From Gambelia wislizenii (lineage: Eukaryota; Chordata; Lepidosauria; Squamata; Crotaphytidae), in the NCBI GenBank assembly GCA_030847615.1, contig JAUMIR010000001.1, forward strand, positions 179,695,001-179,759,000: a stretch of 64,000 bases of DNA. The letters are read 5' to 3'. Both the position numbers and the translations under genes were made by a program. Below the pieces are notes generated by a model. It was not told the origin of the DNA. It worked only from the letters and a program-made list of their open reading frames with translations, and made no database searches. This document shows, piece by piece, positions 8,859 to 59,107 of this stretch; positions within the stretch are counted from its first letter, which is position 1; each line of letters begins with the position of its first letter.

Positions 8859-9421
8859 GGGCTTGTTTAGATTGGCAATTTACCCTGGTTTCCCCCTGTA
8901 TTAGGGCCCTGCAGTCCAAATGGTGCAGGGCTCTTGCCCCAATTTGCCTCCAGACATTTTTGATAATGTCTGAAGTGAAGCCAGGAGGAAGCTGGGGTAA
9001 ACCCTTTAAAAATGTTTCAAAATAAACCCCAGGAAAACCTGTATCATGTCAGAAAACTGGATGGGTCTGGAGAGGGAATGTAGGAGTCTGTACCTGCAAA
9101 CTGGGCTGTATAACCGGAAAACAATGACACTACCACTGGTGTCACTCTGAAGCCAGGAAGGAGGCACCCAGCACATGATCAAGTCCCCATATATATGACC
9201 AGCCTTGATCACATGTCGAGGTCCTTCTTCCTGGCTTCAGAGAGTGTCATGCATGATAGCATTGGAGGCACACACACAATATGCTGACCAGCATGTGCAT
9301 GTGCATACAGACATCTGCCCATTTCATTGCGGTAATGGGGGGTGGGGGGATTTGGGCCAGCTCTGAGGGGAAGAATACTTTGGCCAGAAGGTGGGGTATT
9401 CCGGCCAGTGTAGAGAAGCCC
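8859..9421 (+). mobile_element. T2-family foldback MITE, copy 1
   Basis: Termini are GGGCTTGTTTAGAT on the left and the complement ending AGAGAAGCCC on the right. The interior has the family landmarks (CCCTGCAGTCC near 8908-8920). It also has an internal hairpin in which CTCTGAAGCCAGGAAGGAGG (about 9146-9165) pairs with a later CCTTCTTCCTGGCTTCAGAG (about 9222-9241). Flanking triplets are TCT and TCA. No coding capacity. Sister copies are at 24.27, 45.09 and 47.17 kb. Confidence 0.75.
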
Positions 9422-9639
9422 TCAATCTAAACTTCCTCACAAATCCTCACAAGATTTCTTTATGTGGATGTTTTCGTGTGTCAGCTGAGAAAAACATAAA
9501 GCATTAAAGCATTTAATGTCCAAGTCTAGTGAAACATCTATAAAAGGAAACAATATTGGTGCTTGTCCAGAACATGCACCTTCAAAATCATTTTCAGTGT
9601 TGCTTTTTTTGCTAGTACTTTTTCAGTTCTTTCCTTTGA

Positions 9640-9752
9640 AATGTAGCATTTAGCAACTGGTATTTGTTGGAGGTCTCCCATCCAAGTACTAGCCAGGGCT
9701 GACCCTGCTTAGCTTCCAAGATCAGATGGGATCTGGTGCCTTTAGGGTGGTG
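9640..9752 (-). mobile_element. 5S-rRNA-derived SINE (5S-Sauria type) head
   Basis: The minus strand of 9672-9752 is clearly 5S rRNA-like: it contains AAGCTAAGCAGGGTCAGCCC, TAGTACTTGGATGGGAGACC and the GATC-rich middle. It lacks the first bases of 5S RNA and carries substitutions in the internal promoter. The bases after GGAGACC on the minus strand resemble the post-5S joint of the squamate 5S-Sauria SINE. It is a retroposed copy and not a functional 5S gene. Confidence 0.75.
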
Positions 9753-9839
9753 GTTGCTCCCTCATGTAAACTGTTTTGTGACACTTGTTTTTTTTTAAAT
9801 TTATTTTTTATAATAATTTTTTTTAACTTGAGAAATATA

Positions 9840-10836
9840 GGGGCCGGTTCCACGACAGGAAAAAGTTCGTGAGATTCCGGATTATTGTTCTTTCACATCA
9901 GGAGTGCATAAATCACACGACTCCTGGCATATTCGGAAGATGCAGCCAGATGCAGCCATTTTCTGTTTACCTTAGTTCACACAGACAAAAGTGGGGGGGG
10001 ACACCTCCAGATGATTAAAGCCAGGCAGGAGGTGGGGAAGGAGCAAGGAGGGGGTCATGGAGACCATAAATAATGAGAGGAAAGAAAAGGACAAACAAAC
10101 AAGAGACCGAAAGAGCGATCTGTCAACTTCCCGGTCTTCCCCAGCCCCGAATGAAGAAAGGAGTGAATGAAAGGATGAACAAGCAAAAGTATGGTGGAGC
10201 GATCTCCTTCCCTTCCCTTCCCTTCCCTTCCCTTCACGCATGCACCACAGAAGCAGGGGCTAGCCTCATTCCTGATCATCTTCCCTGCCTCCGAAGCCTT
10301 GAATAAAGGCAAGTGAAGGGAAGGACAAACAAACAAAAGGATGAACATGCAATCAGCTGTTTCCCCGCACACACGAATGCACACACATACACACACACAC
10401 CAGTGAAGCAGGGGCCAGTTCCGATCATCTTCCCAACCCCCAAAGCCTTCCTTTGAAACAGACAGGAAGGGCTCAGAGCAGATTTTCCAAAGTGGGCTGC
10501 AAGCAGAAGGAGGGTGAGTTTCTTCTCTCGAACCCCTCAGTCTATTCGGATAAAGCAGAATGGTCACTCCAACCAACCAGGATTCAGCTCTGCTCACAGT
10601 AATTTGAAAAGGTCGATGCCAATTTACATGATGTTCAGTTCTCATGGCCAATTATGTGCATTTTCGCAAACTTAATCAAAAAAGTCTGGAAAACTAGCGA
10701 AAGCTGATACTGCACGACTTATGGGTTTTTTGCACCCCCTCCTTCTGAAAAGGGCGCTGTTGCTTCGAAATGTGTGAGAATTATCAGGCTTCTTGTCACA
10801 CTCTTTGAAGATTTATTTTGCCGTGTAAACGACCCC
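9840..10836. mobile_element. T7: 997 bp non-autonomous DNA element
   Basis: The left end GGGGCCGGTTCCACGAC and the inverted right end GGGGTCGTTTACACGGC match at most positions. ATA flanks both sides (9837-9839 and 10837-10839), a 3-bp target duplication. Inside, two diverged tandem blocks (about 10165-10300 and 10338-10450) each carry AAGCAGGGGC and GATCATCTTCCC. There is no transposase frame; long open frames here are antisense to each other and low-complexity. Confidence 0.6.
10207..10235 (+). repeat. (TTCCC)n microsatellite
   Basis: About six tandem CTTCC units inside the T7 element. It creates the repetitive open frames seen on both strands there. Confidence 0.95.
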
Positions 10837-11163
10837 ATAGTCTCATGACTGTTTATCCAGTACAAAGGAGATAATAGAGTTAATATAATAAACAGTATGA
10901 GAAGACATACATACATAAATCAAAAGAGAACAGTGCAGGCGCTGAACAAGCTGGGAGGGCTTGGTTACATATGGGGAGAGTTACATAATACAGGAAATAC
11001 AACATTATAGCTAGGTATTACAAGTTGAAGCTGGGGGTATGCATTGGGGAGGAGGGGTCTGCTATTCCACAAGTTGCCATAGTGCAGGGGCAGGCCTATC
11101 AGCCTGTCATTGGTATACAAATAGTCGAGTAAACAGAATCATTTCTCCACAAAGTCAGCAGAA

Positions 11164-11350
11164 TCAGCCCGTTCGCTCATCCCCCGCAAGGCATCTGATA
11201 ATTTTTCTATGAACTAATATTTCCCACACTTTGGCCCACCAGACATCTATTTTGGGCATCTCAATTTTCCAGTTTTTGGTAATGAGGATACAGGAAATGG
11301 CAAGCAGGACTTCCTCTTGGTGGCCATCTGCTGGTTGCCATTCCACCCTT
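11164..11350 (-). mobile_element. L1-like LINE, C-terminal fragment
   Basis: The minus strand reads LLAISCILITKNWK followed by a W-W-containing segment, typical of the region near the C-terminus of L1 ORF2. The frame lasts about 60 codons and then is lost. I assign L1 from this pattern only; no 3' poly(A) tail is visible. Confidence 0.45.
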
Positions 11351-15260: not shown

Positions 15261-15489
15261 GGGACCCATTTACACTACAGAATTACAGCATTACTATTCC
15301 ACTTTTGCTGTCATGGTTCTGTCCTGTGCAATCCTGGGATTGGCAGTTTAGGGAGGGGCATTTAGAATTTGTAGCCAGAGAGTTCCTCTGGCCTCTGACC
15401 AAACTAAAAATCCCAGGATTTCATAAAATGGAACCATGGCAATTGTAGAGGAATACTAGTGCTATAATTTTGTAGTGTGAATGGGTCCC
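15261..15489. mobile_element. T6-related MITE (229 bp)
   Basis: The left end GGGACCCATTTACACTACAG faces the right end TGTAGTGTGAATGGGTCCC, an 18-19 bp inverted repeat with one mismatch. The interior carries the phrase AATCCTGGGATT and its complement, as in the T6 copies at 20.6, 25.4 and 26.7 kb. The flanking triplets do not match. Confidence 0.75.
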
Positions 15490-17035: not shown

Positions 17036-17644
17036 GGTCCCATCTACATGGTAAAAAAAATATGTACGCCGTTCCGAAGATCACTCTTCCGTACACACAG
17101 CCGTTCGGATTCATACGTGTCATTCAGAACAGGGGGTAGCGAATCCCCCATAAACTACGTGGATTCGGCGTTCAGGAGGATTAGCGGATCTCAGCATAAA
17201 ATACGTACAGCTGTTTGAATGGCTGATAGTCTGTATGCCCCGTTTGCACACATACGAACAGGCAGTGTAATCTGATTGGCTGGTCGAGTAGAGGGGGTGG
17301 GGCTAGCAAGGAGGGGAATTGGGAGCAGCTGCATGTTGGATTCCTGGCTAAGCAAGAGTCCAGTAAGTCTGTGAATTTTATATATGTTTATTTTTATTTT
17401 ACTTTGTAAATAGGGAAAACCGAATGTCCGCAAAGCAAGCACCTTTTTATTATTTTTTTTTAAAAAAGCAGCGGGAGATTTAAAACTGCTGCTTGGATCG
17501 CTCGCTCCAGCCAGCTGGGGAAGGGGTTCGTACAGAGTTTAGGGAGGTAAAAAATCAGGTAGGCAGATCGTATACATACGACCGGCTGCCTATTTGTATT
17601 TTTTACCCCCCAAACGGATTTTTTTTAATCGTATAGACGGACCC
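17036..17644 (-). mobile_element. T1-family non-autonomous DNA element, copy 1
   Basis: Ends are GGTCCCATCTACATGG and, inverted, GGGTCCGTCTATACG. TAT flanks both sides (17033-17035 and 17645-17647). The interior aligns with the copy at 26924-27536 in opposite orientation; shared landmarks include AATCTGATTGGCTGGTCGAG and GGTGGGGCTAGCAA here (about 17268-17310). There is no transposase. Confidence 0.75.
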
Positions 17645-20600: not shown

Positions 20601-20754
20601 GGGTGCATCAACACTACACAAATAATCCAGTTTGAAACTGGATTTTTTTGACATGGCTCCTTCCTATGGAATCCTGAGATTTGCAGTTTGGTGAAGCACC
20701 AGCACTGTTTGGCAGAGAAGGCTAAAGAACTTATAAAACTCTAAGGAGATTTTC

Positions 20755-21389
20755 ACACAGGGCCAAAATGCCCCGTTACTGCCCCGACACGTCCTCTCCT
20801 ATTCCTGCCACAGAATAAAGTAAATCTTTTAAACACTTATCTTAATTCCGCAGCAGGAACGGGCTCCCCTCCCCTTGCTGGCCGGCCGTAAATGCAGCCA
20901 TCGTAAGGCTGTTTTTACAACCGGCCATCTGAAACGTTATCACGTTATCACGTTATCACGTTATCACGTTATCACGTGATAATGGCTGGTCAGTAAATTT
21001 TAAAAATAAAACTCCCCAAACATAAAATCAGTTCACCAAGCACAAAAACACACCTTAAATCACACAATCAAAACAGGGAGGGTAAAATAAAGGGTGCCAC
21101 TTACCTGGATGTCCAGATCTTATCAGGAAGTGCTCAGAATGGACCTCCCCTCCGCAGCTGTCATTTTGGAACAGGAACGGGGCTCCTGTTCACACACCCG
21201 TGATTGCGTGATAGTGATGGAATGGGAGGTCTATTCATGATGAAAAATCATGATTACATTGTTCTGAAACAGTCACAGTAGCAGAATGGATGCAAGTCAG
21301 AGTGGGGTCAGCGTCGTCTAAAAGGGAAAACCTTTCCCGACCCTGTTCTGTTCCTGCCATGGGATATATAGCCTGTGTGAAAATATCCT
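20755..21389 (+). mobile_element. T3-family non-autonomous DNA element, copy 1
   Basis: Termini are GGAGATTTTCACACAGG and an inverted right end GGATATTTTCACACAGG. The insertion duplicated TAA of the host MITE (20752-20754 and 21390-21392); removing the insert plus one TAA restores continuous MITE sequence. The interior matches 39743-40358 (GTAAATGCAGCCATCGTAAG, GGTGCCACTTACCTGGATGT). No transposase frame. Confidence 0.8.
20934..20982 (+). repeat. (ACGTTATC)5 ending in a 14-bp palindrome
   Basis: Five 8-bp ACGTTATC units run directly into TTATCACGTGATAA, a perfect palindrome with a CACGTG core. The T3 copy at 39.7 kb lacks it, so it arose in this copy. Confidence 0.9.
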
Positions 21390-21474
21390 TAAGTCCCAGG
21401 ATTCAGTAGGAAGGAGCAATGGCAAACAATCTAGTTTCAAACTGGATTATTTGTGTAGTGTAGATAAGGCCTCT

Positions 21475-23149: not shown

Positions 23150-23743
23150 GGAGATTATCAGACAGGAGCAAAACAAGTGTTCGTGTCCCACAATCTCCTC
23201 TCCTGCCCCTCTCCCATCCCTGTAATGCCACAATAATTAAACATTTCAGACCTACCTACTTCATAGCAGCCCAGGAGTGAATTGAGCTCTGACGGAGCTC
23301 CTTTCGCTTCCTGGCGTTCCTCGTTATTGTGAGAAGATGAGAGCATGGGAAATTCAAAAATAAAAAGCAAAATACAAAACAAAAACTGACAGCAAGCACA
23401 AAAATACACTTTAAAACTTCCAAGAAAACCAGGGAAGTTTTTAAAAAGTGTGTCACTGACCCTGATGTCTCCATCTTACCAGGAAGTGTTCTGGCAGAGA
23501 CCTCTCATTGACGCTGGGATCTAGCCGGCTAAATGGGGCGCCTTTTCAGTCACACATACATGCATTACAGAAACAGAACAGGGGATGCATTGATGGCTTC
23601 TCCCCTCAATAAAAAGCAGTGCCAGTGGAACAGCAGCAGAACGGGTGCATTATGAGAGGGGAATGATGTTGTCTGAAAAGGAAACCCTTTAGCAATCTCC
23701 TGGAGTTGTTATAGTGCCGTATTAATCATGTCTGATAATCTCC
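23150..23743 (+). mobile_element. T4-family non-autonomous DNA element, copy 1
   Basis: Termini are GGAGATTATCAGACAGG and inverted GGAGATTATCAGACATG. TAC flanks both sides (23147-23149 and 23744-23746). The interior matches 41561-42255 throughout (AGTGTGTCACTGACC, AAGTGTTCTGGCAGAGACC). No coding frame. Confidence 0.85.
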
Positions 23744-24194: not shown

Positions 24195-24885
24195 TATTTA
24201 TTAGTAGCCCACTTTTTTCACAGTTCAGGACTCAAGGCAACTTACAACAGTAAAAACAAACTGGGGGCTTATCTACACGAGCCAGGATACACCAGCCCCT
24301 GCACCAGCAAATTCTGACCACTGCTCAGGCCCCTTGTTCTCCCGTTACCTCTACGAAATGGAAGAAAGTCCTGATGGGCACACCAGCTCCCTAGTTGCAG
24401 CTGCCACCATTTTCTTCAGTAATTTGGAAGGCAGGAAGGGGTGACATGACATGTGCCAAGGATCCCTACAGGGGACCAGCCTTGGTCACATGCTGCAGGA
24501 CTCCTTCCTGCCTTCTGGGAGAGCCAGGGACACCACAGCAGCAGTGAGGGCTATCCTGCTGAGATGTGCTTCTAGGGACATGCAGGCACAATCTGTTTTT
24601 TGCCAGCAGTAATGAAGTAAACCAGGTATTTTCTTCTAATGGTGTATTGGGCCCTACCCAGTCTTCCCTCTATATCTGTCCTGGGGGTGGTGAGGACTGC
24701 CTAGGGGCAGAATGGGGGAAATTCCCTGCATTTTATGGACTGCAGGGCTCTGAGATGGGGTATATTGCCCATCTAAACAAGTCCATAGTCAAAAATTCAC
24801 AACATACAAAATTAAATTATATTAAAAAATTAAAACCATTGAAAACAAACATTAAAAGCAACACATAAAACTCTAGCATATTATC
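24195..24885 (-). mobile_element. L2-like LINE 3' tail split by a T2 element
   Basis: 24195-24262 (TTTATTAGTAGCCCACTTTT, GGCAACTTACAACAG) and 24788-24885 (ATTCACAACATACAAAATTA, AAACATTAAAAG) together resemble the antisense 3' end of L2-type LINEs common in squamates. The T2 element at 24265-24784 interrupts it. Confidence 0.45.
24265..24784 (-). mobile_element. T2-family foldback MITE, copy 2
   Basis: Ends are GGGCTTATCTACACG and inverted GGACTTGTTTAGATGGG. The family's left-end landmark GGACTGCAGGGCTCTGAGAT (about 24738-24757) is at the right end, so the copy is inverted relative to the others. The paired CAGGAAGG/CCTTCCTG hairpin core is present. The flanking triplets TGG and ATA do not match. 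Confidence 0.7.
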
Positions 24886-26694: not shown

Positions 26695-26910
26695 GGCCAA
26701 ATCCTCAGTACACAAATAATCCAGTTTGAAACTGGATTATTTATTATGGCTCCCCCTATGGATTCCTGGGATTTGTAGTTTTACAAGGTTTTTAACCTTC
26801 TCTGCCAAAATGTGCTGGTGCTTCACAAAAAATCCCATGATTCCATAGGAAGGAGCCCTGGCAAATAATGCAGTTTCAAACTGCATTATTTGTGTAGTGT
26901 GGATTTGGCC
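26695..26910. mobile_element. T6-family MITE, complete copy (216 bp)
   Basis: GGCCAAATCCTCAGTACAC faces its inverted end GTGTAGTGTGGATTTGGCC, and TAA flanks both sides (26692-26694, 26911-26913). Nested inner inverted repeats (CCAGTTTGAAACTGG; AATCC...GGATT) make most of the element self-complementary. It lies 13 bp from a T1 element. Confidence 0.85.
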
Positions 26911-33101: not shown

Positions 33102-34179
33102 GTGGCTCAGCGACCATCAACGCTAAAATCATACCGCTACAAATGCCAGAAATTCTGTGCGTTCCTTGTTGCCAAGGAAATCTCCACAGTTGACACTTTG
33201 ATGCTGCTGCTTCTTGACTTTTTGGCCTCTTTGTCAATGAAAGGTCTATCACTCTCATCGGTACACACCTATGTGGCCGCAATTTCCTCTAACCTCCAAA
33301 ACCTGGGGAAAGGCTCCTGCTTCGCAGACCCGCTGGTTCCGCATTTCCTCCAGGGCTACAAGAACTTACACCCACCATTGGCTGGACTAGTCATGTCGTG
33401 GGACCTGCTGCTAGTTCTTAAAGCCATCCCATGCTCCCCCTTCGAGCCTCTGGACTTGGTGGACTTGGTGGTGCACGTCCACCGAATCCAGCAGCTCAAA
33501 GGGGGAGCATCCTTTAAGACAGCCTTCCTAGTTGCAGCTCGAAGGGGGAGCATCCTTTAAGACAGACTTCCTAGTTGCCATCACTATGGCCAGAAGGGCC
33601 AGTGAGGTTTGCGCCCTTAGGGCAGATGCCCCCTACACTCAGTTCCATGGGAGTAAGGTCATTCTTCAGCCAGATGTGGCATTCCTGCTCAAGGTGGTTT
33701 CCTCCTTTCATCTCAATCAAGACGTTGTACTCCCAGCTCTGGAAACCATGCCATCATCAAATACACCAGCGTCACATCATCCCCTAGATGTACGAGCTGC
33801 ATTGCAACTGTACCTCAACAAGACTAAGGCATTCCGCCGTACCAGTAAATTCCTTGTTTGCTATTCCAGCCCCAAAAAGGTTCTCCCTGTCTCCTCTCAA
33901 CACCTCTCCAAGTGGGTGGTTTCAACCATCAAGATCTCATACGAAGCTTCAGGCACACCCCTACCTTCTTCAATATGAAGCCATTCTACTAGAGCAACAG
34001 CTACCTCAATGGCATTCATGAATGGTGTGCCACTACCAGACATCTGCAGAATGGCTACGTGGGCGACACCACTTACCTTTGTGAAAAACTATAAGTTAGA
34101 CTCTTCCTCTAGGGATCGTGCAGCCCTGGCTAGGCAGTCCTCACACATCCATCTTTGGATGGCTGAAGAGTTTCTCTAA
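33102..34179 (+). pseudogene. DIRS tyrosine recombinase, two lesions
   Basis: This enzyme would resolve and integrate the circular DIRS DNA intermediate. The N-terminal SAM-like part reads STLKSYRYKCQKFCAFL and LSSVHTYVAAISS. The catalytic domain starts at FKTDFLVAITMARRASEVCAL (first Arg). After a TGA (33976-33978) the frame continues with HSTR (33982-33993), then GVPLPDICRMATWATP, and the tyrosine in NYKLD (34090-34092). It ends at TAA 34177-34179. The R-H-R-Y set is thus all present. The damage is a 43-bp tandem duplication (about 33498-33583) that shifts the frame, and the single TGA. Length is near normal for the family. Confidence 0.85.
33498..33583 (+). repeat. 43-bp tandem duplication inside the recombinase
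   Basis: AAGGGGGAGCATCCTTTAAG and the next about 20 bases are repeated at a spacing of 43 bp (GGGGGAGCAT at 33501 and 33544) with about three differences. Since 43 is not a multiple of three, it moves the reading frame from phase 0 to phase 1. Confidence 0.9.
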
Positions 34180-36667: not shown

Positions 36668-37275
36668 GGAATTTATCAAATGCAGCAAAAATCACAGGTT
36701 TATGACATCATGATAGCATGAACAGGCACAGCTATCACATGATGTCGTCATCTTTGTGTGGTTACTCTGTGCCCCAACCACGAACAAGGCATTGCTTCTA
36801 TTTGATGGGACAAGCCATCAATAGATCGTCAATATTGCTCTTTTTTTGCAGTATTGAGGGCATGTGAAAACATGTCCTGTTGTAATCACAAAATAACAGT
36901 GTGAATGGGTAGGCCTCCGTGAGAAAAAGTCCAGGTGAGAACGTGAAAATTAAGCACAGGATGCTCTTTTTATGAACATTCTCATTTAGTTTCAATATTT
37001 TTATGTTTGTTCAGTGCTTGTGTGTTCATTTACTTTGTTACTTAATGAGTTTTTGGAGTTTTAAGTGTGCACACATCTTTCTCAGGAAAACTGCTGAAAT
37101 CTCACCCATGCTAAATCACTCCTGTTCTTAAAGTGTTGTGGTCATCGTGTGATAATTCTTTGGCAGTTCTTTTATGTGATTACAGCAACATGTGATAGTA
37201 TAATAGTGTCATGATGTTTTTGCTTTCCTCACTTGCAGAATTACAGCATTTTTGCACACTAGTCTGATAACGTCC
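36668..37275 (-). mobile_element. T5-family non-autonomous DNA element, copy 1
   Basis: The right end, read inverted, is GGACGTTATCAGACTAG; the left end is GGAATTTATCAAATG. The whole interior aligns inverted with 58497-59107 (AAAGAGCATCCTGTG, CCATTCACACTGT and GTAATTCTGCAA recur). Flanks are TTA and TTG. Confidence 0.7.
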
Positions 37276-39742: not shown

Positions 39743-40358
39743 GGACGTTTTCAGTCAGTGCCTTTTGCCCCATTCCTGACTCACTACCGCCACACCCGTT
39801 CCTGACACAGAATCAAGGAAAATGTTTCATACACTTATCTTGATCATGCAGCAGGAATGTCCTCCCCCTCCCTCCACTGGCTGGGAGTAAATGCAGCCGT
39901 CGTAAGGCTGCATTTATGACCCAGAAATGAAATCCTGCTCATTTTCATGAGAGAATGGTGTCACAGGAATTTAAAAAATAAAAAATAAATGTAAAAAAAA
40001 AAAGCCCCCATACAATTTTTTTTTTAAAAAAAGTAACCTGGAGAGGGGGGGGCAAGGATGCCCCTTACCTCCTTGTCCAAATCTCCACAGGAAGTGTTCT
40101 GAATGGACCTCCCCCCCCCACAGCAGGCACTTTCTAGAAGCCTTGGAATGGGGCTCCTTTTCCCACACTCATGAGTCCGTGATAGACACGAAACAGGTGT
40201 TCTATTCACGATGTTTCACCGTGAATACTATATTACTGGAGAAGAACAGGGGCAGCACGGGAACAGGACAGACAGGGTCAACGTTGTCTGAAATAGAGAG
40301 CCTTTTTTGACCCTGTTCTATGCCTGCCACGGAATATAGAGCCCATCTGAAAATCTCC
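39743..40358 (+). mobile_element. T3-family non-autonomous DNA element, copy 2
   Basis: Termini are GGACGTTTTCAGTCAG and inverted GGAGATTTTCAGATGGG. TAT flanks both sides (39740-39742 and 40359-40361). The interior matches the 20.76 kb copy (AATGCAGCCGTCGTAAGGCT, GGGTCAACGTTGTCTGAAA) but lacks its octamer array. Confidence 0.85.
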
Positions 40359-41560: not shown

Positions 41561-42255
41561 GGAGATTATCAGACTGGAATGAAAAAAAAAGTGTTCCTGT
41601 CCCACAATCTCTACTCCTGCCCTGCCCCATCCCTGTCACGACACAATCACCCTCCCCACTGCAATTACCACCTCTTCCATCATTCCGGCAGCACAGGAGT
41701 GAACCGAGCTATAATGGAGCTCCCTTCACTTTCTGGATTGAAATCCCACAGATTCTCACAAGAAGACACGAGCGTGTGAAATTAAAAAATAAAAAGAACA
41801 TGAAAAAAATTACAGCAAGCACAAAAACACACTTTAAAAGGTAGAAGTAACCCAGGGAGGGTCATACAAAGTGTGTCACTTATGTGAATGTCCCAATCTC
41901 ACCTGGGAGTGTTCTGGCAGGGACCTCCCATAGACTCTGGAATCTCACCAGCCTAATGGGGCAGCTTTTCGCTTGCAGGAAAATCCGTGACAGAAACGGA
42001 ATGAAGGATTCGTGATTTCCTGCATGGCAGGGGGTTGGACTTGATGGCCCTTGTGGTATCTTCCAACTCTGCAATTCTATGATTCTATGATTCTATGATC
42101 TATTGACGGCCTATCCCATCAATAAAAAGCAGCGCCAGCAGAATGGCAGCAGAACGGGTGCATAACAATGGGGGAACAACATTGTCTGAAAAGGGAACCC
42201 TTTTGCAATCTCCTGGAATTTTGTAACAACACTTTTAATGCATCTGATAATCTCC
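41561..42255 (+). mobile_element. T4-family non-autonomous DNA element, copy 2
   Basis: Termini are GGAGATTATCAGACTGG and inverted GGAGATTATCAGATGC. TGA flanks both sides (41558-41560, 42256-42258). It aligns with the 23.15 kb copy throughout, except for an inserted CR1 tail at about 42008-42099. Confidence 0.85.
42008..42099 (+). mobile_element. CR1 3' tail nested in T4 element
   Basis: Only about 90 bp of CR1 3' UTR remain: TTCCTGCATGGCAGGGGGTT through GATGGCCCTTGTGG and an ATTCTATG repeat tail. The T4 copy at 23 kb has no such insert at the equivalent site (between GATGCATTGATGG and the AATAAAAAGCAG block). Confidence 0.85.
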
Positions 42256-42258: not shown

Positions 42259-43161
42259 GATTCTTTCTTTTCAGGCCAAGGGTCCATAGATTATAACATG
42301 CATTTACTGCTCCACAAGTTGCATGTGAAAATTAATGTACTGCCCTCTGATCCTAAAAGATGCATCTAGTCAGCACAGTGCAGTAGAACATAAATACGCC
42401 CAAGAAAATGGTTGGTGCTGTACAGTAGATAATAATCCCATCATACCACATGGAGGGCAGGGTACACCTCATGTATTTAGCCCAAACTCATATGGCTGCT
42501 ATACAACAGAGTTTTGAATACAATGAAAAGTCCAGTGTTTTAGCAAAGCCAGGGCTTGCAGGTTGAAGCCCTAGTACTCTTTGATTAGCAGGGACAATGA
42601 TATTAGTTGCCATCTACTTCCCACCAAGCTTCTCTGTTCCATCTGAGTTTAGCTGTAATCCTTACAGTAACTAGAGGGCAAATGGATATACTAATCATCA
42701 ATGTACTGTTATGAATTGTACTCTGTTATTATCCTAAATGTTTGGAAAAGGAAGAGGCTTGGATTTAATGGGCAATGAAGAACCATTCACGTTACAAAAT
42801 ACCTGATCCTAGCAGAGGTGAAAACTTACAGGTTTTTTTAAAAAATAAATATAATGATTAACATGGATGCCTGCATTTTTTTTAAAAAAAATCTTCATTT
42901 GTCACTATAGAGACTGTTATGGTGAGAGCCAGGACTTCAGCATTTCCAACTATAGTGCTAGAGCAGGCTGTGTGGAATCATATTTTCATGCATCAGTTGC
43001 TGCCATTAGATTAAATCTGTCTATGACAAGCTGACTGTATTCCTGTAGCTTCATTGAAAATGCCACAGGCTAAACAGGTAGAAAGTCACAAACAAACCAT
43101 GCATGCAAATGTCCATATGTCCTGCATGGTATTGACACACACAACCACACTGCCTCTTGTA
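42259..43161. other. Unassigned interval
   Basis: Nothing recognised; T/A runs near 42833-42845 and 42877-42892. Confidence 0.4.
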
Positions 43162-44085
43162 CAAGGCCTGTCTATTAAATAGCGAGACTGGTGTAATAAA
43201 CCATTTTTATTTATATGTATGATATTATAATGCTTGTTGCCTTCAATATACTCTGCATTCACATTCACACACTGATGCAGTCTTGTTTTCCATGGTGAAA
43301 GGCATGGAGCCGATCGGTTTCTGTCAGTTGTGTCAACACATCTGCCGTTTTCTTTGTACTGCATCAATTGACTCAAAAAGTGTTCCTTTAAGTACCAATT
43401 TCAATTTAGGGAAAAGAAAAAAGTTGTGTGGTGTCAAATCTGGCAAATATGAAAGATGTTCAAGTGTAGTAATGCATTTATCAGCCAAAAACTGCTTCAC
43501 AGAAAGTGCTGCATGAGCAGGTACATTTTCTTGATGAAGAATGAAAACATTTCCCCACAGTTCTAGCCTTTTTTTCCTGATTCTTTCTCACAGCTTTGTC
43601 AAAACTTCCTTAGAATAATGCTGGTTCACTGGCTGTGTTCTGGAACCCATTCTGCCAAAATTATGCCCTTAATTTCAAAAAACCCAATGAGCATGGCTTT
43701 GAATGTGGACTTGCTTTGATGTGCTTTTTTCATTCTTTGTGATGATGGTGTTTTCCAGTGCATTGATTATCATTTTGTCTCTGGATCATTCTGGAAGGTC
43801 CAAGGTTTCATTACAAATGATGATTTTTTGAAAAATGTTTGGGTCCACCTCAAGTTGCTGCAGAATGTCACATTGCTCGACTTAAACATAGCATTTTTGT
43901 GGCACACAACAGACAACACAGCTGCTTGAAATGCTGACTGCCAATTAACTGAACAGCTAAGAGTGTTCATGTTTATCATGCAGGTTCAGACATGTTCAAG
44001 GTCACCACTGAAGCATTCACAATCGGTTTCCCTGATTTGTCTGAAAGGTAGAAACACAGTCTTGTTATTTAATAGACAGACCTTA
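43162..44085 (-). pseudogene. mariner-like transposon with dead transposase
   Basis: Termini CAAGGCCTGTCTATTAAATA and inverted TAAGGTCTGTCTATTAAATA match over about 20 bp and are flanked by TA. The minus strand carries transposase fragments ordered CNETL (normally GDETW, first D), HQENVPAHAALSVKQFLA (normally HDNAPAH, second D) and LEHLSYLPDLTPHNFFLFPKLK (normally CDYHLF-type, third D). The three catalytic aspartates are N, E and N, so it is inactive. At about 924 bp it is shorter than a standard roughly 1.3 kb mariner and lacks most of the N-terminal DNA-binding domain. Confidence 0.85.
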
Positions 44086-44129
44086 TATATTGTCCATGAT
44101 AAATTCATCCTCCATGAATTTATCAAGTT

Positions 44130-45084: not shown

Positions 45085-45613
45085 GGCCTTGTCTAGACAA
45101 TCTGTTTACCCCATCTTAGAGCCCTGCAGTCTCAATAACACAGTGCTTTTGCCCTGTTTTGCCCTGGGCAGTCCTAACAAAGCCCAGAGCAAATAGAGGT
45201 GCAAAACAGGGTAAAGGCCATTGAAATGTTTCAGCAAAACACCCAGGGAAAAAAAATGCTTCTTTTTTGGGAGAAATGGATTGGGCCCTATGGGTCCACA
45301 GGAGCCCATATAGGTATGCCAGCCCATCGCTGCAGCTGCCATCCACATTGTTCTCCCTGAAGCCAGAGAGGAGTCCTGCAGCATATAACCAAGGCTGGGC
45401 ACATGCAGAAGGCCTTGATCACATGCTGTGGGCCCTCTTTCCTGGCGTCAGAAAATGCATCATAGTATGAAGTGGTGGTGGCTGCAGAGACAGGCTAATG
45501 TGGTGTTCTGGACTCCATCCCATTTCGTTCAGGTAACGGAAGGAATGGGCCTGAAACAGGGCCAGAATATGCCAGTGGGAAGCCAGCATATTCTGGCCAG
45601 TGTAGACAAGGTC
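45085..45613 (+). mobile_element. T2-family foldback MITE, copy 3
   Basis: Termini are GGCCTTGTCTAGAC and inverted GACCTTGTCTACACTGG. TAT flanks both sides (45082-45084, 45614-45616). The inner hairpin pairs TCCCTGAAGCCAGAGAGGAG with CCTCTTTCCTGGCGTCAG (about 45353-45450). Confidence 0.8.
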
Positions 45614-47173: not shown

Positions 47174-47682
47174 GGGCTTGTCTAGATGGGCTATTTACTT
47201 CATCTTGCCCCATCTTGGAGCCCTGCAGTCCATACAATGCAGGGCTGTGCCCTGTTTTGCCCCCCAGGTAGTCCTGATGATGCCCAGGGAAACGACAGGT
47301 TGAAGACTGTTAACATGTAATATTTTAACACCTGGGAAAAACTGCCTCATTTAAGGAAAACTGGATTGGGCCCCCTGGGAACACAGGAGTCTTCATGGAC
47401 AAGCTAGACCATACTGGTAGGCACCTATTCTGCCACCCACATCACACTCTCTGAAGCCAGGAAGAAGGCCCGCAGAATGTGATCAAGTCTCATCACATGC
47501 AGGGAACCTTGAGCATGTGCTGCAAGCCTCCTTCCTGGCTTCACAGAGTGTGGCATGGATGGCACTAGAGGCAGCCACCAGAATGGGCCGGTGTATCCAT
47601 GCAGACTTCCTTCCATTTAATGTGTGTGACTGGGAGCGGGGGGCAGGCCTGATATGGCATTCTGGCCAGTGTGGACAAGCCC
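47174..47682 (+). mobile_element. T2-family foldback MITE, copy 4
   Basis: Termini are GGGCTTGTCTAGATGGG and inverted GGGCTTGTCCACACTGG. TGA flanks both sides (47171-47173, 47683-47685). The hairpin core is clear: CACACTCTCTGAAGCCAGGA (about 47444-47463) against TCCTGGCTTCACAGAGTGTG (about 47532-47551). Confidence 0.85.
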
Positions 47683-48360: not shown

Positions 48361-50692
48361 TTATATAGCCCCTGGAGAAGGCCATTGAATCACTTAATAC
48401 AAATGTCCTCCACCCAGAACCCTTTATTAGAGCCAACTAAAGCCTGCTGCGATGCTTTAAATAATCACTTCGCAGACAAAGGACTTTTTCGGACATCTAA
48501 AATGTAACGGAAGCAGCCTCGCCACGTTGCGAGGCTGCTGCGCTGCAGGGCGTCCCTTTCGCATGATGCCCATCCCTGCTGGTACTGTTGCGGTACCGCA
48601 GGGACATTTGAGTGTTATATTTTAGCGATTTTTACTCATGATCAACTTTCCCTGCGGTACCGCAACAGTATTGGCAGGGATGGGCGGCATGCAAAAGGGA
48701 TGCCCTGCAGAGCAGCAGCCTCGCAACGTGGCAAGGCTGCTTCTGTTACATTTTAGATGTCCGAAAAAGTCCAAAATCTCTCAGATAAGAGCAGATTTGG
48801 ATGCTGGCCTTGTGGCAGAAGTGACAGGAAAGTTATCTAGCATCTCAGTGAATACTGATATACTGGATCAGTTTGAGTCGGTGACTACTGAGGATGTGGA
48901 CAAGCTCCTTGGTAGTATGAAAAAGATGACCTGCTCTCTCTATCCCTTCCCATCTTGGCTGGCTGTCCAAGGGGGGAGATACGATCAAGGTGCTGTTGAA
49001 GCATATAATTAACGCATCTTTCAGGGAAGGCTGACTTCCATCTTGCCAAAAAGAGTCAGTACTTAAACCATTCCTTTAAAAAAAGCCCTCCCTTGACCCC
49101 CTGGACAAAAACAATTATAGGCCAGTCTCGCTTTTACCATTCTTAAGCAAGGTGATCGAGAGAACGGTCGCCATTCAACTCCAAGCAGTCTTGGAAGAAA
49201 CTGATTTTTTAGATCCATTTCAAACTGGATTTAAGACAGGATACGGAGTCGAGACTGCCATGGTTGCCTTGGCTGATGATCTCTGTCTGGGCATCGACAG
49301 GGGAAGTGTTACCAGCTGGTGCTCTTGGACCTCTCAGCAGCCTTCGATACCATTGACCACGGTGTCCTTTTAGAATGCCTGGGAGAACTGGAAATTGGGG
49401 ACACTGCTTTGCAGTGGTTCTGTTCCTATCTCTCAGGTAGATTCCAGATGGTGGTGTTGGGAGACAGTTTCTCTTCTAAAAGAGAGTTAAAATCTGGCGT
49501 CTCCAGGGTGCCATCCTGTTTCCTATGCTTTTCAAAATTTACATGAAGCCACTGGGAGAGATCATCCCGAGACATGGGGCAGAGTGTTATCAGTACACTG
49601 ATGACACCCAAATATGTTTCTCTATGTCTCAGACTGTTGCAGTGAATAAGGATGGTATCTCTCCTCTGAATGACTGCCTTAGGGCAGTAATGAATTTGAT
49701 GCGGGAAAACAGACTCAAACTGAATCCAGATAAGGTATTTGCTACTGGGACCCCTAATCCAGGAATGGAGATATGTCCACCAGTCCAGATGGGGTCACAC
49801 CTCCCCTGAAGGACTGTGTTTGAAGCTTGGGGGTGCTCCTTGACTCCTCTCTCCAGCTGAAAGCCCAAATAGATATGATGATCAGGAGTGCCTGTTATCA
49901 GCTTTGGCTGATACATCAGCTGCGACCCTTTCTGGAGCAGGATGACCTAGAAACAGTAGCACACACACTGGTACTCTTGGCTTGACTTCTGCAACACACT
50001 CTACATGGGGCTACCCTCGTGCCAAGTTCGGAAACTTCAATTGGTACAAAACATGACAGCCAGCTTAGTCGCAGGTACATCTAAAGCCAACCACATAACA
50101 CCTGTCTTAAAATCCCTTCATTGGCTGCCAATTAGTTTCTGGGCAAGGTACAAAGTGTTGGTTATAACCTTTAAAGCCCTACATGGCCTGGGTCCAGGCT
50201 ACTTGCGGGAACACCTTCCTCCATATAATCCACCCTGCACACTTAGGTTCTCTGGGAAGAACCTGTTGCAGTCAAAGAAGACCAGATTGGCTGCAATGAC
50301 CCAGAGGACCTTTCCATCTATGGAATGACTGGCTGGACAAGATCTGTCATATTACCATCCTAGAAGCCTTTAAAAGGGCCATTAAGATGGATCTCTTCTG
50401 CCAGGCCTTTCCAGATTAGCCTTCCAGATAAAAAACAAACAAACAAACCTACTCACAAACTTATTGAATTTGTATTTGTAAATTTTAATATATTCTGCTG
50501 ATTAATTTCTATTTTATTGTTCTTTGTTGTTTTTATGATTGTGGGGAGAGATGGGATATGAGATTGCTTTTTAACATTGAGCTTTTATTATTATAATATC
50601 TTATTGTTATAATTATGTTGTACTCCACCTTGATTCCCTAGGGAAAAGGTGGAATATAAATAAAATATCATCATCATCATCATCATCATCAA
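48361..50692 (+). pseudogene. L2 LINE, ORF2 RT region to 3' tail
   Basis: It opens in the linker before RT (CCDALNNHFADK at about 48450-48480) and is split by a 292 bp palindrome. It continues with KISQIRADLDAG, then VIERTVAIQLQAVLEE and FQTGFKTGYGVETAM, then LLDLSAAFDTIDHGVLLECL (first palm Asp). Next are LFKIYMKPLGEII with the YTDDTQI box (catalytic DD kept), LKLNPDKV, and the C-terminal LQLVQNMTASLVAGTSKA, HWLPISFWARYKVLVI. At least four frame shifts and a stop make it dead. The 3' end is AAATAAAATATC followed by (ATC)n at 50668-50691, the LINE-tail microsatellite. Confidence 0.9.
48481..48772. mobile_element. FB-family palindromic element, copy 1 (292 bp)
   Basis: The two halves are inverted copies over about 128 bp each with roughly nine differences and a centre of about 36 nt. 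Ends are GGACTTTTTCGGACATC. The insertion duplicated AAA (48478-48480, 48773-48775); removing insert plus one AAA restores the L2 frame FADKISQI. Each arm contains smaller hairpins: GCAGCCTCG...GCGAGGCTGC and TGCGGTACCGCA. Not coding. Confidence 0.9.
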
Positions 50693-52476: not shown

Positions 52477-53077
52477 GGGATTGTCTAAATGGTGAAAATA
52501 TACTCCTCATGGAATGTGAGGAGAAAGTTATCTGTCCCTTAGTGGGATTCTGGATCGTTTCACCATACTTGGAAGGAGGGGGGCCAAAAACATAATATAC
52601 ACGGGAGTTTTTGAAAAACAGTTGGGGGAATATACATTCCTGCTCATTGGGACAAGTGACACTAATCGATTCATTTTCCCATATGTGCAGAATCTGAAAG
52701 CTGATTGTTTGGACAAGCGCAGGGTGTGAAGCTTGCTAACAAGGCAAGCGCCCAGAAACACCATGTTGGATTTTTGCTTTAGCAAGCAAGTGCTAAGGAA
52801 ATAAAATGGGGTGTTGTTTTTTTAAGGTGAAATATTGCTCTATCACACATTGGATATAGTTTTTTAAAAATGTTCAGTGGTGTCAAATTGAGGTAAGTAA
52901 AAAAGCAAGTAATTCACTCACAGCTGCCATCTTGATTCACAGGCATGCCTGTTTGCACAGCAAACATGGATAGCTTTGCATGCCTGCAATCTGCAAAAAA
53001 AATTAAAAAAAACAGCTGCTATGAATTGCCATTACTGCGGAGAAATCTGCTTGTTCTTGCATCATATAGACAAGACA
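52477..53077 (-). mobile_element. T1-family non-autonomous DNA element, copy 3
   Basis: The left end GGGATTGTCTAAATGG and inverted right end TGTCTTGTCTATATGATG follow the T1 termini. The minus strand has AAGATGGCAGCTGTGAGTGA and ATTACTTGC, matching GAGATGGCGGCCATGTGTGA and ATTTACTTGC of the 26.9 kb copy. Target triplets are not clear. Confidence 0.65.
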
Positions 53078-53159: not shown

Positions 53160-53217
53160 AAGAAAGAAAGAAAGAAAGGAAGGAAGGAAGGAAGGAAGGA
53201 AGGAAGGAAGGAAGGAA
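53160..53217 (+). repeat. (AAAG)n(AAGG)n microsatellite
   Basis: About five AAAG units then ten AAGG units. It produces spurious K/E/G/R-rich reading frames in two phases. Confidence 0.95.
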
Positions 53218-54547: not shown

Positions 54548-55284
54548 ATGCATAGATACAGGATGGGGGAGACATGGCTGAATGAGACTACGTGCGAAAG
54601 GGATCTAGGAGTCCTAGTAGACCACAAGTTGAACATGAGTCAACAGTGTGATGCGGCAGCTAAAAAGGCCAATGCGATTTTGGGCTGCATCAATAGAAGT
54701 ATAGTGTCTAGATCAAGGGAAGTCATAGTGCCACTCTATTCTGTCTTGGTCTGGCCTCACCTAGAATACTGTGTCCAGTTCTGGGCACCACAATTCAAAA
54801 AGGATATTGACAAATTGGAGCGTGTCCAGAGGAGGGTGACTAAAATGGTGAAAGGTTTGGAAATCCATGCCTTATGAGGAAAGACTTAGGGATCTGGGTA
54901 TGTTTAGCATGGAAAAAAGACAGTTAAGGGGCGATATGAAAGCCCTGTTTAAGTATTTGAAGGGGTGTCACATTGAGGATGGAGCAGGCTTGTTTTCTGC
55001 TGCTCCAGAGACTGGAACACGGAGCAATGGATGCAAGCTCCAGGAACAGAGAGTCCACCTTAACATTAGGAAGAACTTTTTGGCAGTAAGAGCTGTTTGA
55101 CAGTGGAACACACTCCCTTGGAGCGTGGTGGGGTCTCCTTCCTTGGAGGTCTTTAAACAGAGGCTGGATGGCCATCTGTCGGGGATGCTTTGATTGTGAT
55201 TTCCTGCGTGGCAGGGGGGTTGGACTGGATGGCCCTCGTGGTCTCTTCCAACTCTGCAATTCTATGATTCTATGATTCTATGAT
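54548..55284 (+). pseudogene. CR1 3' half of ORF2 and tail
   Basis: It reads [20 protein letters not shown] and [19 protein letters not shown], then [21 protein letters not shown] and [17 protein letters not shown]. An extra base near 54865 shifts the frame to [20 protein letters not shown], and a stop follows RAV near 55098. The 3' UTR has GCAGGGGGGTTGGACTGGAT and the tail is (ATTCTATG)n at 55258-55284. It is the longest of the young CR1 copies here. Confidence 0.9.
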
Positions 55285-55874
55285 TTTTATTGCCCATTAC
55301 AAACATTGCCTCAGATACAGTTGCTTGTATGTAAATGGTGTAACATCTTAGCTGCTTAAAGAATTGTCCTTTCTGTATGAATCTTTTATATTTTAAATTC
55401 CAACACTGATATAGGAATCATTTTTATTTGTTCTTTGTGAACCATCTGTCACTTTTTAAGTGTTAAAAGAGACATCAGTAGCAAAAATGAGGAAAAAATA
55501 ATGTTATTCTCTTGACTCATTTAATGATTGCTGTATGTGCTCCCTTTACTTCTCCATTGCTGACTGTAGATACAGCGATGGCACACAGTAGGCTCCTTGC
55601 TTACCTTTTCTTTGGCTCCATTCCCCTCTGCACTATCTTGAATAATGTTTCCCAGAGATTGAGGGATGTCCTGGGTGAAGCAGTGGGAAGGGGGGACTGG
55701 AGGAAAATGGAGCAAAATTTTTGCTTAGGGAAGGGATGTGCTGGGGATGTCCACAAGTGCAAAACACAGATCTAAATCAATATTTGCAATATATGAGTGT
55801 GCATAGATACATAAAGATATATCATTGAATACCAAAGTTATCGTTGCCTGTACTATAATACTTCTGTACTCTCT
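55285..55874. other. Unassigned interval
   Basis: Nothing recognised. The 87-codon plus frame at 55512-55775 overlaps an equally long minus frame and has no motif. Confidence 0.4.
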
Positions 55875-56406
55875 GGACTTTATCAGAAGCATCAAATATG
55901 GCATCATAACTGCAAAAGGGGCTGTATATCAGACGATGTCACCATTTTGCTGTTATGTCCCTGCCAAAACCTGTAGTTTTTAATTGATGGCTTAAGCCAT
56001 CAACTGATCCTCCCTGCCATTTCCTCACGTCCTTTTCCCCAGTACTTACCCTGTCAGTGGGCGGTCCGGTGCAAACACTTCTGGGTGAGATCGCAACATC
56101 CAAGTAAGTGACACACTTTTTACAACCCTCCCCAGGTTACTTGTGAGGTTTTAAGTGTGTGCTTTTAAAAACATTTTTAGTGTTATTTTTTGTTTGTTTT
56201 TTAATTTCCCCCACGATGAAGTCTCACAATATTTTGCAGGATTACAAAGGAGGAATTGAATGGAGCTCAATTCCTCTTTCATTGCCAGAGCTGTCTTTGC
56301 TGGTATTAAAGGTAAGTGCAGGGAGGGAGCATTCTTTTCCTGGCATAGAAATTGCTTTTTTTATACCAACAAAAGAACGCTTTAAAGGAAACATCTGATA
56401 AAGTCC
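55875..56406 (-). mobile_element. T4/T5-type non-autonomous DNA element
   Basis: Ends are GGACTTTATCAGAAGC and inverted GGACTTTATCAGATG. TCT flanks both sides (55872-55874, 56407-56409). The termini are T5-like, while the interior read on the minus strand (AAAAAGTGTGTCACTTACTT, CTGGGGAGGGTTG) matches T4. It links the two families. Confidence 0.8.
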
Positions 56407-56439
56407 TCTGTATGATTGTTAAAGCTGGATAGTCAAGAA

Positions 56440-57178
56440 AGCTGACAGGGAAAGAAACAACTCATTTGATATGTTGTACTGGAGGAAGGTTCTGTGGATA
56501 CCATGGACTACCAAAAGACAAATGAATGGGATCTAGAACAAATCAAGCCTGAACTCTCCCTTGAAACCAAAATGACCAAACGGAGACTATCATACTTTAG
56601 ACATATAGGACTTTTTTGGATGTGTCAAAAATAACACAAGCAGCTTCATTGCGTTGCGAGGCTGTTGCACTGCAGAGCATCGGTTTCATATGACGCTCTC
56701 CGCTGCCGGTACTGTTGTGGTACCGCGGGGAGATTTGAGCTTCATATTTCGTCGATTCTTAAGCATGAAAGTTGATCGTGATTAAAAACCAATGAAATAT
56801 GATGCTCAAATCTCCCCTCGGTACTGCAACATACTGGCAGGGGAGAGCGTCATACGAAACCGACGCTCTGCAGTACAGCAGCCTCGCAATGCGACGAGGC
56901 TGCTTGCGTAACTTTTGACGCATCCAAAAAAGTCCATAATGAGATGGCAACATATTAGATGACATAACTTATTGAAAAAGATAATAATATTTGATAAAGT
57001 GGGGGGCAGTAGAAAAGGAGGAAGATCACATTAGAGGGGGATAGACTCAGTCAAAGAACCCATGGCCCTGAGTTTGCAAGACCTGAGCAGGGCTATTGAT
57101 GACAGGGTGTCATAGAGGTCTCTCTTTCACAGGGTTGTCACAAATCAGAACTGACTTGATGCAATTAACAAAAAAAAA
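56440..57178 (+). mobile_element. BovB/RTE LINE 3' end split by an FB palindrome
   Basis: Before the insert it reads LETKMTKRRLSYFRHI; after it reads MRWQHIR and, by 57050, ALSLQDLSRAID, all parts of the BovB pol C-terminus. The 3' end TTGTCACAAATCAGAACTGA and CTTGATGCAATTAACAA gives the BovB tail. Frames are broken, so it is a fossil copy. Confidence 0.75.
56608..56935. mobile_element. FB-family palindromic element, copy 2 (328 bp)
   Basis: Outer ends GGACTTTTTTGGATG and inverted GGACTTTTTTGGATGCG match; the arms are self-complementary over nearly the whole length. It shares GCAGCCTCG-type hairpins and the GGTACTGTTG/GGTACC block with the 48.5 kb copy. ATA flanks both sides (56605-56607, 56936-56938). 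Deleting the insert plus one ATA rejoins the BovB codons for LRHIMRW exactly. Confidence 0.9.
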
Positions 57179-58496
57179 TTGGAAATGTATACTGTCTTTT
57201 TCTATTTCGTGGGTTGTTGCACACATCAATGAGTCTATACATAACACACACACACATGAGTAAAACCTAATGGGAGACCCACCTCTTCACTGGACCTTAT
57301 TTCACTAGCAAATCTCTGGGATAAACTTCTGCAACCTTCATGGAAATCACAGTATTTCAGCTGAATGGAGGACTTAACAAATTGATGAAATTTATTTCTG
57401 CCTCTCTTCCTTACCACACACATTTTAACTTTAAAAAGGGAAAAAGAACTGGTTCCTGTACAGATCTGTTAAGAATATCATGTTACCCTAAGAGGTGTGG
57501 GGTGACCTTGGACCAGTAAAAACATCTGCAGTGTGGACACTACTTCTCTATATTGCAAAAATATATCCTTCTAGAACACAAATGATGGGGAAAATTAGCT
57601 CCGATGTACTCAAGGAAGAAACTTGCCAGGGTTACACTTCAGCTATGCTTCCATAGAAGAGAATGATATCTCCCCAGTAGAGCTTGACCTAATGCATACA
57701 TTAACTGAATACTAAGGATAAGATGAGAAAATACATGTTTAAGAAATGTTATTATTACCCATCCTGTTACGTATTATCGATATAAATACAAGAGGTACAA
57801 CCAGGCATTGATTGGGAGGTCCTAAATATAGGCCTACAACTAGTTGCCAGCAAATATAATAGGAGACTAGTGAAGGACATTGGACATACTAGAGGCTTAG
57901 GAGGGGAAGATGTAATGAACTGAAAGATGGAGTTCAGGAAATTGTGCTAGGGCAGTTATAGATACTGGGTAAAAAATCTTGGTGCTGTAGTGTGTGTGTG
58001 TGTGTGAGAGAGAGAGAGTGAGTATTTTAATTTTGTGCAGTTGGGATGCACCTTTCCAGAAATACTTGTTTGTTTCTCAAATTACTACACCAAGTGTGAT
58101 TAACTAAGAAGCTATCTGAGGCAGGCTTCTCCTTGGGTTTTCAGGTGAAGTTTAGCGTCCTTCCTGTATTGTATATTTTCCTTTCAAGGATTCTAGCCAA
58201 TCAGTAGATAATAATAAAGCTTGACTACGCATTAGGGTTGCCAGGTGCCCTTTATGATGAAGGCTATCTCTTATTTGAGTTCTGGAAAGCTAGTCCCTTA
58301 TAAGACTGGCAGGTGTCCCTTATTATAAAAGATGTGCCTATTTGAGGGTTGGTTTTTCCTTTTATATAGACTGAACAAGAAGTCAAAAAATCCCATATCC
58401 TTTTGGTGTGGGTACTTCATAGAGACAGAAATGTGTGCATTGTGTAATTTATGAATGTGAACAATATGCTAATTTCACAGAGAAATACATGGCTAA
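57179..58496. other. Unassigned interval with microsatellite
   Basis: (CA)n at about 57245-57257 and (TG)n(AG)n at about 57990-58019. No gene recognised. Confidence 0.45.
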
Positions 58497-59107
58497 GGAC
58501 TTTATCAGACTAGCATCTAAAAATGTGGTAATTCCACTATTGCGGAAAGCAGAAACATAGTGGCTTGATAACAGTAATTATCGTACCTCAAGTAATTGTG
58601 TGATACTACCGCCATGGAATCATGGCATGACAACTACCACTAGCAGTTTAAGAATAGGATTTACTTCCGTGATTTTGAATGGGTGAGACTTGAGCTGTTC
58701 AAGAAGACATGACTTTGTTTAACACACCAAAAACACATAAATAATGAAAGAAATTAACAAATAAACACTTAAACAAACATAATACCAAGAAAAGGTGACA
58801 GTTAATTAAAAGAGCATCCTGTGTGTCCTGTGTTCTCATTGGGAAAGGGGAGGGGGGAAAGGACCACCTATTCACACTGTAATCACACAATTATGGTTGG
58901 ACATGACTTTGCACACTTGTCAATACCATGAAAAGAGTGATATTGAGGGCTATTCATGGATTTTCCTATCAGTGAAAAGTGACAAGCAATTAAGAAATTG
59001 ATTATCTTCGGACCATGGGAGGACAACAATTTTGTGTGATAACCAGAATCCATTTGCAGTAGTGTCATGCTGTAATTCTGCAATTATAGCCCCACCTGAT
59101 AAAGTCC
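58497..59107 (+). mobile_element. T5-family non-autonomous DNA element, copy 2
   Basis: Termini are GGACTTTATCAGACTAG and inverted GGACTTTATCAGGTGGG. It aligns inverted with 36668-37275 along its length. Flanks TAA and TCA agree at two of three bases. Confidence 0.75.

What the first reader, a model, noticed from the sequence alone, without database searches (positions are those of the whole stretch)
8859..59107. About twenty non-autonomous DNA elements share GG-starting TIRs and 3-bp target duplications
Families T1-T7 and FB have different interiors, but their ends start GGxC/GGAG and often continue with a TATC/TGTC-like core: GGGCTTGTCTAGA, GGTCTTGTCTATA, GGAGATTATCAGAC, GGACTTTATCAGAC, GGAGATTTTCACAC, GGACTTTTTCGGA, GGCCAAATC. 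Matching flanks are TAT (17.0, 39.7, 45.1 kb), TGA (41.6, 47.2), TAC (23.2), TCT (20.6, 55.9), TAA (20.8, 26.7), ATA (9.84, 56.6) and AAA (48.5). The triplets are not limited to TWA, so classical PIF/Harbinger does not fit neatly. No transposase is present. They may all be mobilised by one or a few related, possibly undescribed, transposases.
Basis: partly seen in the sequence, partly recalled or inferred. Interest (0 to 1): 0.75.

Follow-up and report, generated by a model that had tools for sequence, protein, structure and literature searches.

The report
Harbinger-type hitchhiker elements in reptile DNA
The stretch is littered with short, gene-less jumping elements of the known PIF/Harbinger kind, and the same genome carries many longer relatives with the two genes such elements need, so this looks like an ordinary but very abundant example of a known system.

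Summary
The observation largely holds. Of 20 places in the window with paired, inverted GG-type ends, 12 are flanked by an exact 3-bp duplication, none by 4 bp or more, and a 13th fits with a one-base shift. The ends are genome-wide repeats: GGGCTTGTCTAGA occurs 7,971 times against 17 for the reversed control, GGAGATTATCAGAC 22,465 times against 6. Beyond the triplet there is a target signature, C at position -4, in each end group and at ends upstream of transposase genes. It agrees with C|TNA|G, published for the NuwaII group of the PIF/Harbinger (PHIS) superfamily, whose ends mostly begin GG. The genome holds at least 150 DDE_Tnp_4 matches; several sampled loci also carry a Myb/SANT gene, the PIF/Harbinger pair. 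Element 9840-10836 has ends 13-15 of 16 identical to ends at such loci. T1-type ends resemble them more weakly, the GGAG/GGAC class not clearly; no T1, GGAG or GGAC end was found bounding a transposase at 26 partly read loci. Best reading: Tourist-like MITEs mobilised by several Harbinger lineages. New members of a known kind.

The parts
8859..9421 (+). T1-type element (GGGCTTGTTTAGAT / GGGCTTCTCTACAC), flanks TCT/TCA, no exact duplication
   Evidence: 73% identical to L024 and L015 copies
9840..10836 (+). 997-bp non-autonomous element, ends GGGGCCGGTTCCACGA / GGGGTCGTTTACACGG, duplication ATA; ends match those found upstream of Harbinger-type transposase genes
15261..15489 (.). fold-back element, ends GGGACCCATTTACA, no duplication
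17036..17644 (+). 609-bp element, GGTCCCATCTACAT / GGGTCCGTCTATAC, duplication TAT; 84% identical over its full length to L016:8813-9426 (duplication TAA)
20601..21471 (.). fold-back (FB-type) element, duplication TCT, interrupted by the nested element 20745-21388
20745..21388 (+). GGAGATTTTC-type element nested in the FB element; duplication TAA if the right end is moved one base
23150..23743 (+). GGAG-type element, duplication TAC
24265..24784 (-). T1-type element, no duplication
26695..26910 (.). fold-back element GGCCAAATCC, duplication TAA
26925..27536 (-). degenerate GGTCTTGTCTATA-type element, left end uncertain, no duplication
36668..37275 (-). degenerate GGAC-type element, flanks TTA/TTG; 66% to 58497-59107 over 343 bp
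39743..40358 (+). GGAC/GGAGATTTTC-type element, duplication TAT
41561..42255 (+). GGAG-type element, duplication TGA; contains the 3' end of a LINE-like repeat (CR1 by recall)
45085..45613 (+). T1-type element, duplication TAT
47174..47682 (+). T1-type element, duplication TGA
48481..48772 (.). fold-back element GGACTTTTTCGGAC, duplication AAA
52477..53077 (.). doubtful pair of T1-like ends, no duplication
55875..56406 (+). GGACTTTATC-type element, duplication TCT
56608..56935 (.). fold-back element GGACTTTTTTGGAT, duplication ATA
58497..59107 (+). GGACTTTATC-type element, flanks TAA/TCA

Best explanation
These are Tourist-like MITEs: non-coding, probably internally deleted derivatives of PIF/Harbinger (PHIS superfamily) cut-and-paste transposons. 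Inferred mechanism: a Myb/SANT protein and a DDE transposase made by autonomous copies elsewhere in the genome bind the ends, excise the element and insert it at a roughly palindromic WC|TNA|GW target with a 3-bp stagger, which leaves the 3-bp duplication. Shown here: the ends, the 3-bp duplications, the C at -4, genome-wide repetition, and autonomous-type loci in the same genome with both genes whose left ends match one window element. Inferred: that these proteins, or extinct relatives, moved each MITE family. At least two end classes (GGG/GGC and GGAG/GGAC) point to more than one transposase lineage. Many window copies look old (64-76% identity between T1 copies in the longer alignments), so their own partners may be lost.
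For: 3-bp duplications at 12 of 20 places and never 4 or more; 6 against 0.17 expected. C at -4: T1 40 of 59, GGAG 13 of 22, transposase-type end group 15 of 17 distinct ends, background 0.213; GGAC 11 of 16 after removing 7 ends also counted under GGAG and 2 internal sites from the 18 of 25. Of the 17, 13 lie at transposase loci and 12 of these have C. A largely separate sample of GGAG ends: C at -4 in 36 of 53 (53 of 100 listed rows carried letters; at least 2 of the 53 are also). Genome-wide, CTNA precedes 1,784 of 7,971 exact T1 ends, 22.4%, against 1.75% from base composition. Published match: C|TNA|G target, GG ends, DDE plus Myb/SANT genes (PMC4482050). 150 scored DDE_Tnp_4 matches, all above the cut-off, out of 1,527 first-look candidates; Pfam found DDE_Tnp_4 and Myb_DNA-bind_4 in L034, the former in L035, the latter in L037 and L040; the DDE triad (D17, D106, E142) is conserved or nearly so. 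Window 9840-10836: right end 13-15 of 16, left end 14-15 of 16 identical to left ends at L034, L040, L044, L045, L046, L050, L052, L053. T1 right ends are closer than shuffles to the L040 and L059 ends (uncorrected p 0.0017).
Against: No T1, GGAG or GGAC end was found at the boundary of a transposase element at 26 sampled loci (L060 only through its identity with L035). Most of these were read only over about 900 bp upstream, left ends were identified at 14 of 26, and they are not a random sample of the 1,527 candidates. Stray matches did occur: a GGAG-like 14-mer with 2 mismatches about 160 bp upstream of the end in L048 and a GGAC-like one with 2 mismatches about 900 bp upstream of the end in L034; I read both as unrelated. 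The GGAG/GGAC class is not clearly similar to the ends at transposase loci (p 0.07-0.84), and T1 is not clearly similar to two of the types there (T1 left p 0.09 and 0.15). Both ends, and hence the duplication, of a complete autonomous copy were not seen. The triplet itself is loose: TNA at 18 of 59 T1 ends and 3 of 17 transposase-type ends. No transposase tree with the published groups was made.
Confidence: 0.86

Rival explanations
1. The GGG/GGC families are PIF/Harbinger derivatives, but the GGAG/GGAC class belongs to a separate, so far unlinked transposase lineage (another PHIS group or a new one) that converged on, or shares, the same target preference.
For: GGAG/GGAC ends resemble each other but not clearly the ends at sampled transposase loci; no transposase found next to them.
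Against: Same 3-bp duplication and same C at -4, GGAG 13 of 22 and 36 of 53, GGAC 11 of 16; GG start; GGAG against T1 right end p 0.007 uncorrected; only a small share of the transposase loci could be read.
Confidence: 0.15
2. The families belong to several unrelated superfamilies that share a 3-bp duplication and a GG start by chance (for example Zator or Academ-like elements; these names and traits are recalled, not looked up).
For: End sequences and sizes differ between families; the triplets are not limited to TWA.
Against: C at -4 is shared by the end groups and by transposase-type ends; interiors of the GGAG/GGAC families are partly homologous. No search for those superfamilies' transposases was made.
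Confidence: 0.05
3. Chance pairing of short ends in a repeat-rich window.
For: 7 of 20 places lack the duplication.
Against: Shuffles; thousands of genome-wide copies against near-zero controls.
Confidence: 0.01

Closest known systems
NuwaII group of the PHIS (PIF/Harbinger, ISL2EU, Spy) superfamily, Han et al. 2015, PMC4482050
   Same: 3-bp duplication (most likely, by that paper), target C|TNA|G, most ends starting GG, autonomous elements with a DDE transposase and a Myb/SANT gene; reported from one turtle among other hosts (section 8 read)
   Different: The triplet is looser here than TNA; clade membership of the transposases was not tested; one end type alone has 22,465 exact sites here, against 7,564 NuwaII copies in that paper, which notes that MITEs may have been missed
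Tourist-like MITEs and PIF of plants (PMC2836001, passages read)
   Same: 3-bp duplication, target preference beyond the duplication, short non-coding elements moved by a two-gene Harbinger element; maize PIF's CWCTTAGWG (recalled; not found in print here) contains the WC|TWA|GW core favoured here
   Different: Plant duplications are TTA/TAA (PMC2213677, passages read); here TAT, TGA, TAC, TCT, ATA, AAA and others occur
Harbinger-Snek of sea kraits (PMC8437027, section 10 and passages read)
   Same: Squamate Harbinger with transposase, Myb-like protein and many short non-autonomous variants
   Different: There one horizontally acquired family; here many families, several of them old. That paper says Harbingers were not reported from solely terrestrial vertebrates; a later lizard annotation does not fit that (PMC10699878)

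Membership tests
PIF/Harbinger (PHIS) superfamily | 3-bp target duplication | tested here: met
   12 of 20 window places exact at 3 bp, none at 4 or more
PIF/Harbinger (PHIS) superfamily | target preference extending beyond the duplication | tested here: met
   C at -4 in all four end groups; CTNA at 22.4% of 7,971 T1 ends
PIF/Harbinger (PHIS) superfamily | DDE transposase and Myb/SANT protein encoded by autonomous partners | tested here: inconclusive
   Both genes are present in the genome and next to left ends matching element 9840-10836; no such partner found for T1, GGAG or GGAC
NuwaII group | C|TNA|G target | tested here: inconclusive
   C at -4 strong, T at -3 and A at -1 favoured, but full TNA at only 18 of 59 T1, 10 of 22 GGAG and 3 of 17 transposase-type ends and 3 of the 16 GGAC ends listed
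NuwaII group | first two bases of the ends GG | tested here: met
   (most ends; the right end of 45085-45613 starts GA, 26925 and the right end at 53077 do not start GG). Pairs were sought with GG, so this is partly by construction
NuwaII group | transposase in the Nuwa clade | not tested
   reference sequences of that paper were not at hand
PIF/Harbinger group in the strict sense | TWA duplication | tested here: not met
   TWA at 12 of 59 T1 ends; TAT, TGA, TAC, TCT, ATA, AAA among the window duplications
ISL2EU | 2-bp AT duplication | tested here: not met
   duplications are 3 bp
Tc1/mariner | TA duplication (recalled) | tested here: not met
   duplications are 3 bp

The most novel reading that the evidence does not exclude
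The GGAG/GGAC class, with 22,465 exact ends of one type, is driven by a transposase lineage that is not among the Harbinger lineages seen here, a further group of the PHIS superfamily whose target is defined by C and G outside the duplicated triplet more than by the triplet.
Probability: 0.12. Interest if true: 0.45.

Novelty: new member of a known kind. Interest (0 to 1): 0.27.

Why it matters
It corrects a tempting claim of an undescribed transposon group: the loose triplets are explained by an extended target in which the base next to the duplication carries more information than the duplicated bases. It also shows, in a genome whose nearest named transposase matches are lizards, old MITE families side by side with many open Harbinger-type transposase copies, several with the same score, which makes tests of which transposase moves which MITE feasible.

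Tried and rejected
Transposase coding remnants in the window: tblastn with ten Harbinger-type sequences gave nothing better than E 0.5 in the window or L012-L032. Ends of L035, L036 and L037: not resolved. L037 is a 4.55-kb tandem, the L036 copy adjoins an LTR-like repeat, and a second copy of the L035 type (L060) was 100% identical over its 901 bases, so it gave no boundary. Right ends of L034 and L035 in adjoining stretches: not found. A first loose pair scan was uninformative. Solved structures of the transposase: no match at E 0.01. Search for 'Chompy' MITEs: nothing relevant among the 10 listed. Genome-wide flank letters for T1 and whole-family DNA searches were not obtained because the genome search was mostly unavailable. 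My first GGAC count (18 of 25) held 7 ends shared with GGAG and 2 internal sites; recounted as 11 of 16.
Full report
What is there. The window lies in a 2.47-Gb genome held as 68 contigs. In a scan of GG-start pairs, 6 of 54 had a 3-bp duplication, against a mean of 0.17 and maximum of 2 in 60 shuffles; with 3 mismatches allowed 8 of 162 against 1.78. In 284 kb 32 of 946 against 12.6, where every fetched locus had been chosen for a T1 end and where 2-bp and 5-bp matches were in excess too.

Genome-wide repetition. GGGCTTGTCTAGA occurs 4,006 and 3,965 times on the two strands, the reversed control 12 and 5. GGAGATTATCAGAC occurs 11,167 and 11,298 times, control 3 and 3. Pairs of T1-like ends outside the window show duplications TGA and TAA, TTG, TAG, TTA, TAA (5 of the 19 rows outside the window; many of the other rows are not real pairs).

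Interiors. BLAST of 36 elements, some with one end guessed: T1 copies are 64-76% identical in their longer alignments; GGAG, GGAGATTTTC and GGACTTTATC families share internal blocks of about 85-200 bp at 70-77%; 17036-17644 is 84% identical to L016:8813-9426 over its length; two fold-back copies outside the window are 94.6% identical.

Target. Position -4 is C at 40 of 59 T1 ends, 13 of 22 GGAG and 15 of 17 transposase-type ends, background 0.213; GGAC 11 of 16 after removing shared and internal sites (18 of 25 before). Positions -5 and -6 of T1 show no such excess (C at 7 and 8 of 59). Of the 17, 13 lie at transposase loci, and 12 of these have C. The triplet is looser: TNA at 18 of 59, 10 of 22 and 3 of 17. 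In a largely separate sample, 36 of 53 GGAG ends have C at -4 and 15 of 53 TNA (base -5 was restricted to A, C or T by the pattern; these are the first rows of one contig). CTNA precedes 1,784 of 7,971 exact T1 ends, against about 139 from base composition (composition).

Transposases. DDE_Tnp_4 gives 150 scored matches, all above the cut-off, from 1,527 first-look candidates; many are open over 230-250 codons, some have internal stops, and several groups have the same score. Loci L033, L034, L036, L037 and L040 carry a transposase in two open stretches (the first cut in L036) and a Myb/SANT-like gene. Pfam confirmed the Myb domain in L034, L037 and L040; L033 and L036 rest on similarity to these. 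L035 has the transposase, but no Myb domain was found in its tested stretches. The catalytic exon holds D, D and E at conserved or nearly conserved columns. Left ends were identified at 14 of 26 sampled loci: GGGGTCGGTTCCACGG, GGGG(C/T)(G/A)GTTTACACGG and GGGTG(C/T)(A/G)TTTATACGAGG types, the weakest being L033. The other 12 gave none, two of them (L049, L051) because the stretch began inside an element of the second type. Window element 9840-10836 ends GGGGCCGGTTCCACGA and GGGGTCGTTTACACGG, 13-15 of 16 identical to the first two types. End comparison with shuffles (600 shuffles per pair, 105 pairs, no correction for multiple tests): T1 right end against the L040 and L059 ends p 0.0017, against the first type 0.023, against the third 0.12; GGAG against ends at transposase loci p 0.07 to 0.23; GGAG against GGAC p 0.0017; GGAG against T1 right p 0.007.

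Comparison with print. PMC4482050 (abstract, passages and section 8 read) defines NuwaII by C|TNA|G, mostly GG ends, DDE and Myb/SANT genes, in 12 species including one turtle, and warns that MITEs may be missed. PMC2836001 (passages): extended targets and two required proteins in PIF/Harbinger. PMC8437027 (passages and section 10): sea-krait Harbinger with non-autonomous variants. PMC8872380 (passages): PIF-Harbinger 0.02-0.03% in the other elapid columns of its table, 11.19% in one. PMC10699878 (passage): Tourist/Harbinger 3.18% of the Urosaurus genome. Nearest named transposase relatives include Elgaria, Heteronotia, Gekko, Eublepharis and Chrysemys, 40-54% identity. The paper searches were by words, not by sequence, and repeat libraries such as Repbase were not available, so these families may already be catalogued.

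Verdict. Ordinary in kind, strong in number. The claim of a possibly undescribed transposase is not needed for the GGG class and is open, but unlikely, for the GGAG/GGAC class.

Noticed in passing
window 43160-44087 (-): Decayed mariner element, 31-nt inverted ends, transposase remnant matching Mos1; Pfam at E 0.01 listed nothing for it.
   Followed up: partly
window 9648-9761 (-): 5S rRNA-like match (Rfam RF00001, 48.8 bits), probably a 5S-derived SINE.
   Followed up: no
window 4928-5635 (-) and 33102-33560 (+): GDSL-lipase-like and integrase-SAM-like open frames, possibly parts of DIRS-type retrotransposons (both below Pfam's cut-off).
   Followed up: no
L035 4314-4976 (-), L036 5216-5908 (-), L037 2201-2665 (+), L040 5283-5678 (-): A further open frame on the strand opposite to the transposase in four Harbinger-type loci; the three tested have no Pfam family above cut-off (L036 was not tested). 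It may be a third gene or the end of a converging one.
   Followed up: no
L037 (C1:51734000-51741500): Harbinger transposase locus in tandem copies 4.55 kb apart, 99.8% identical over the overlap read.
   Followed up: partly
window 60934-61599: 96% identical to a stretch in L036 that follows coding sequence which by eye looks copia-like, so perhaps a solo LTR.
   Followed up: no
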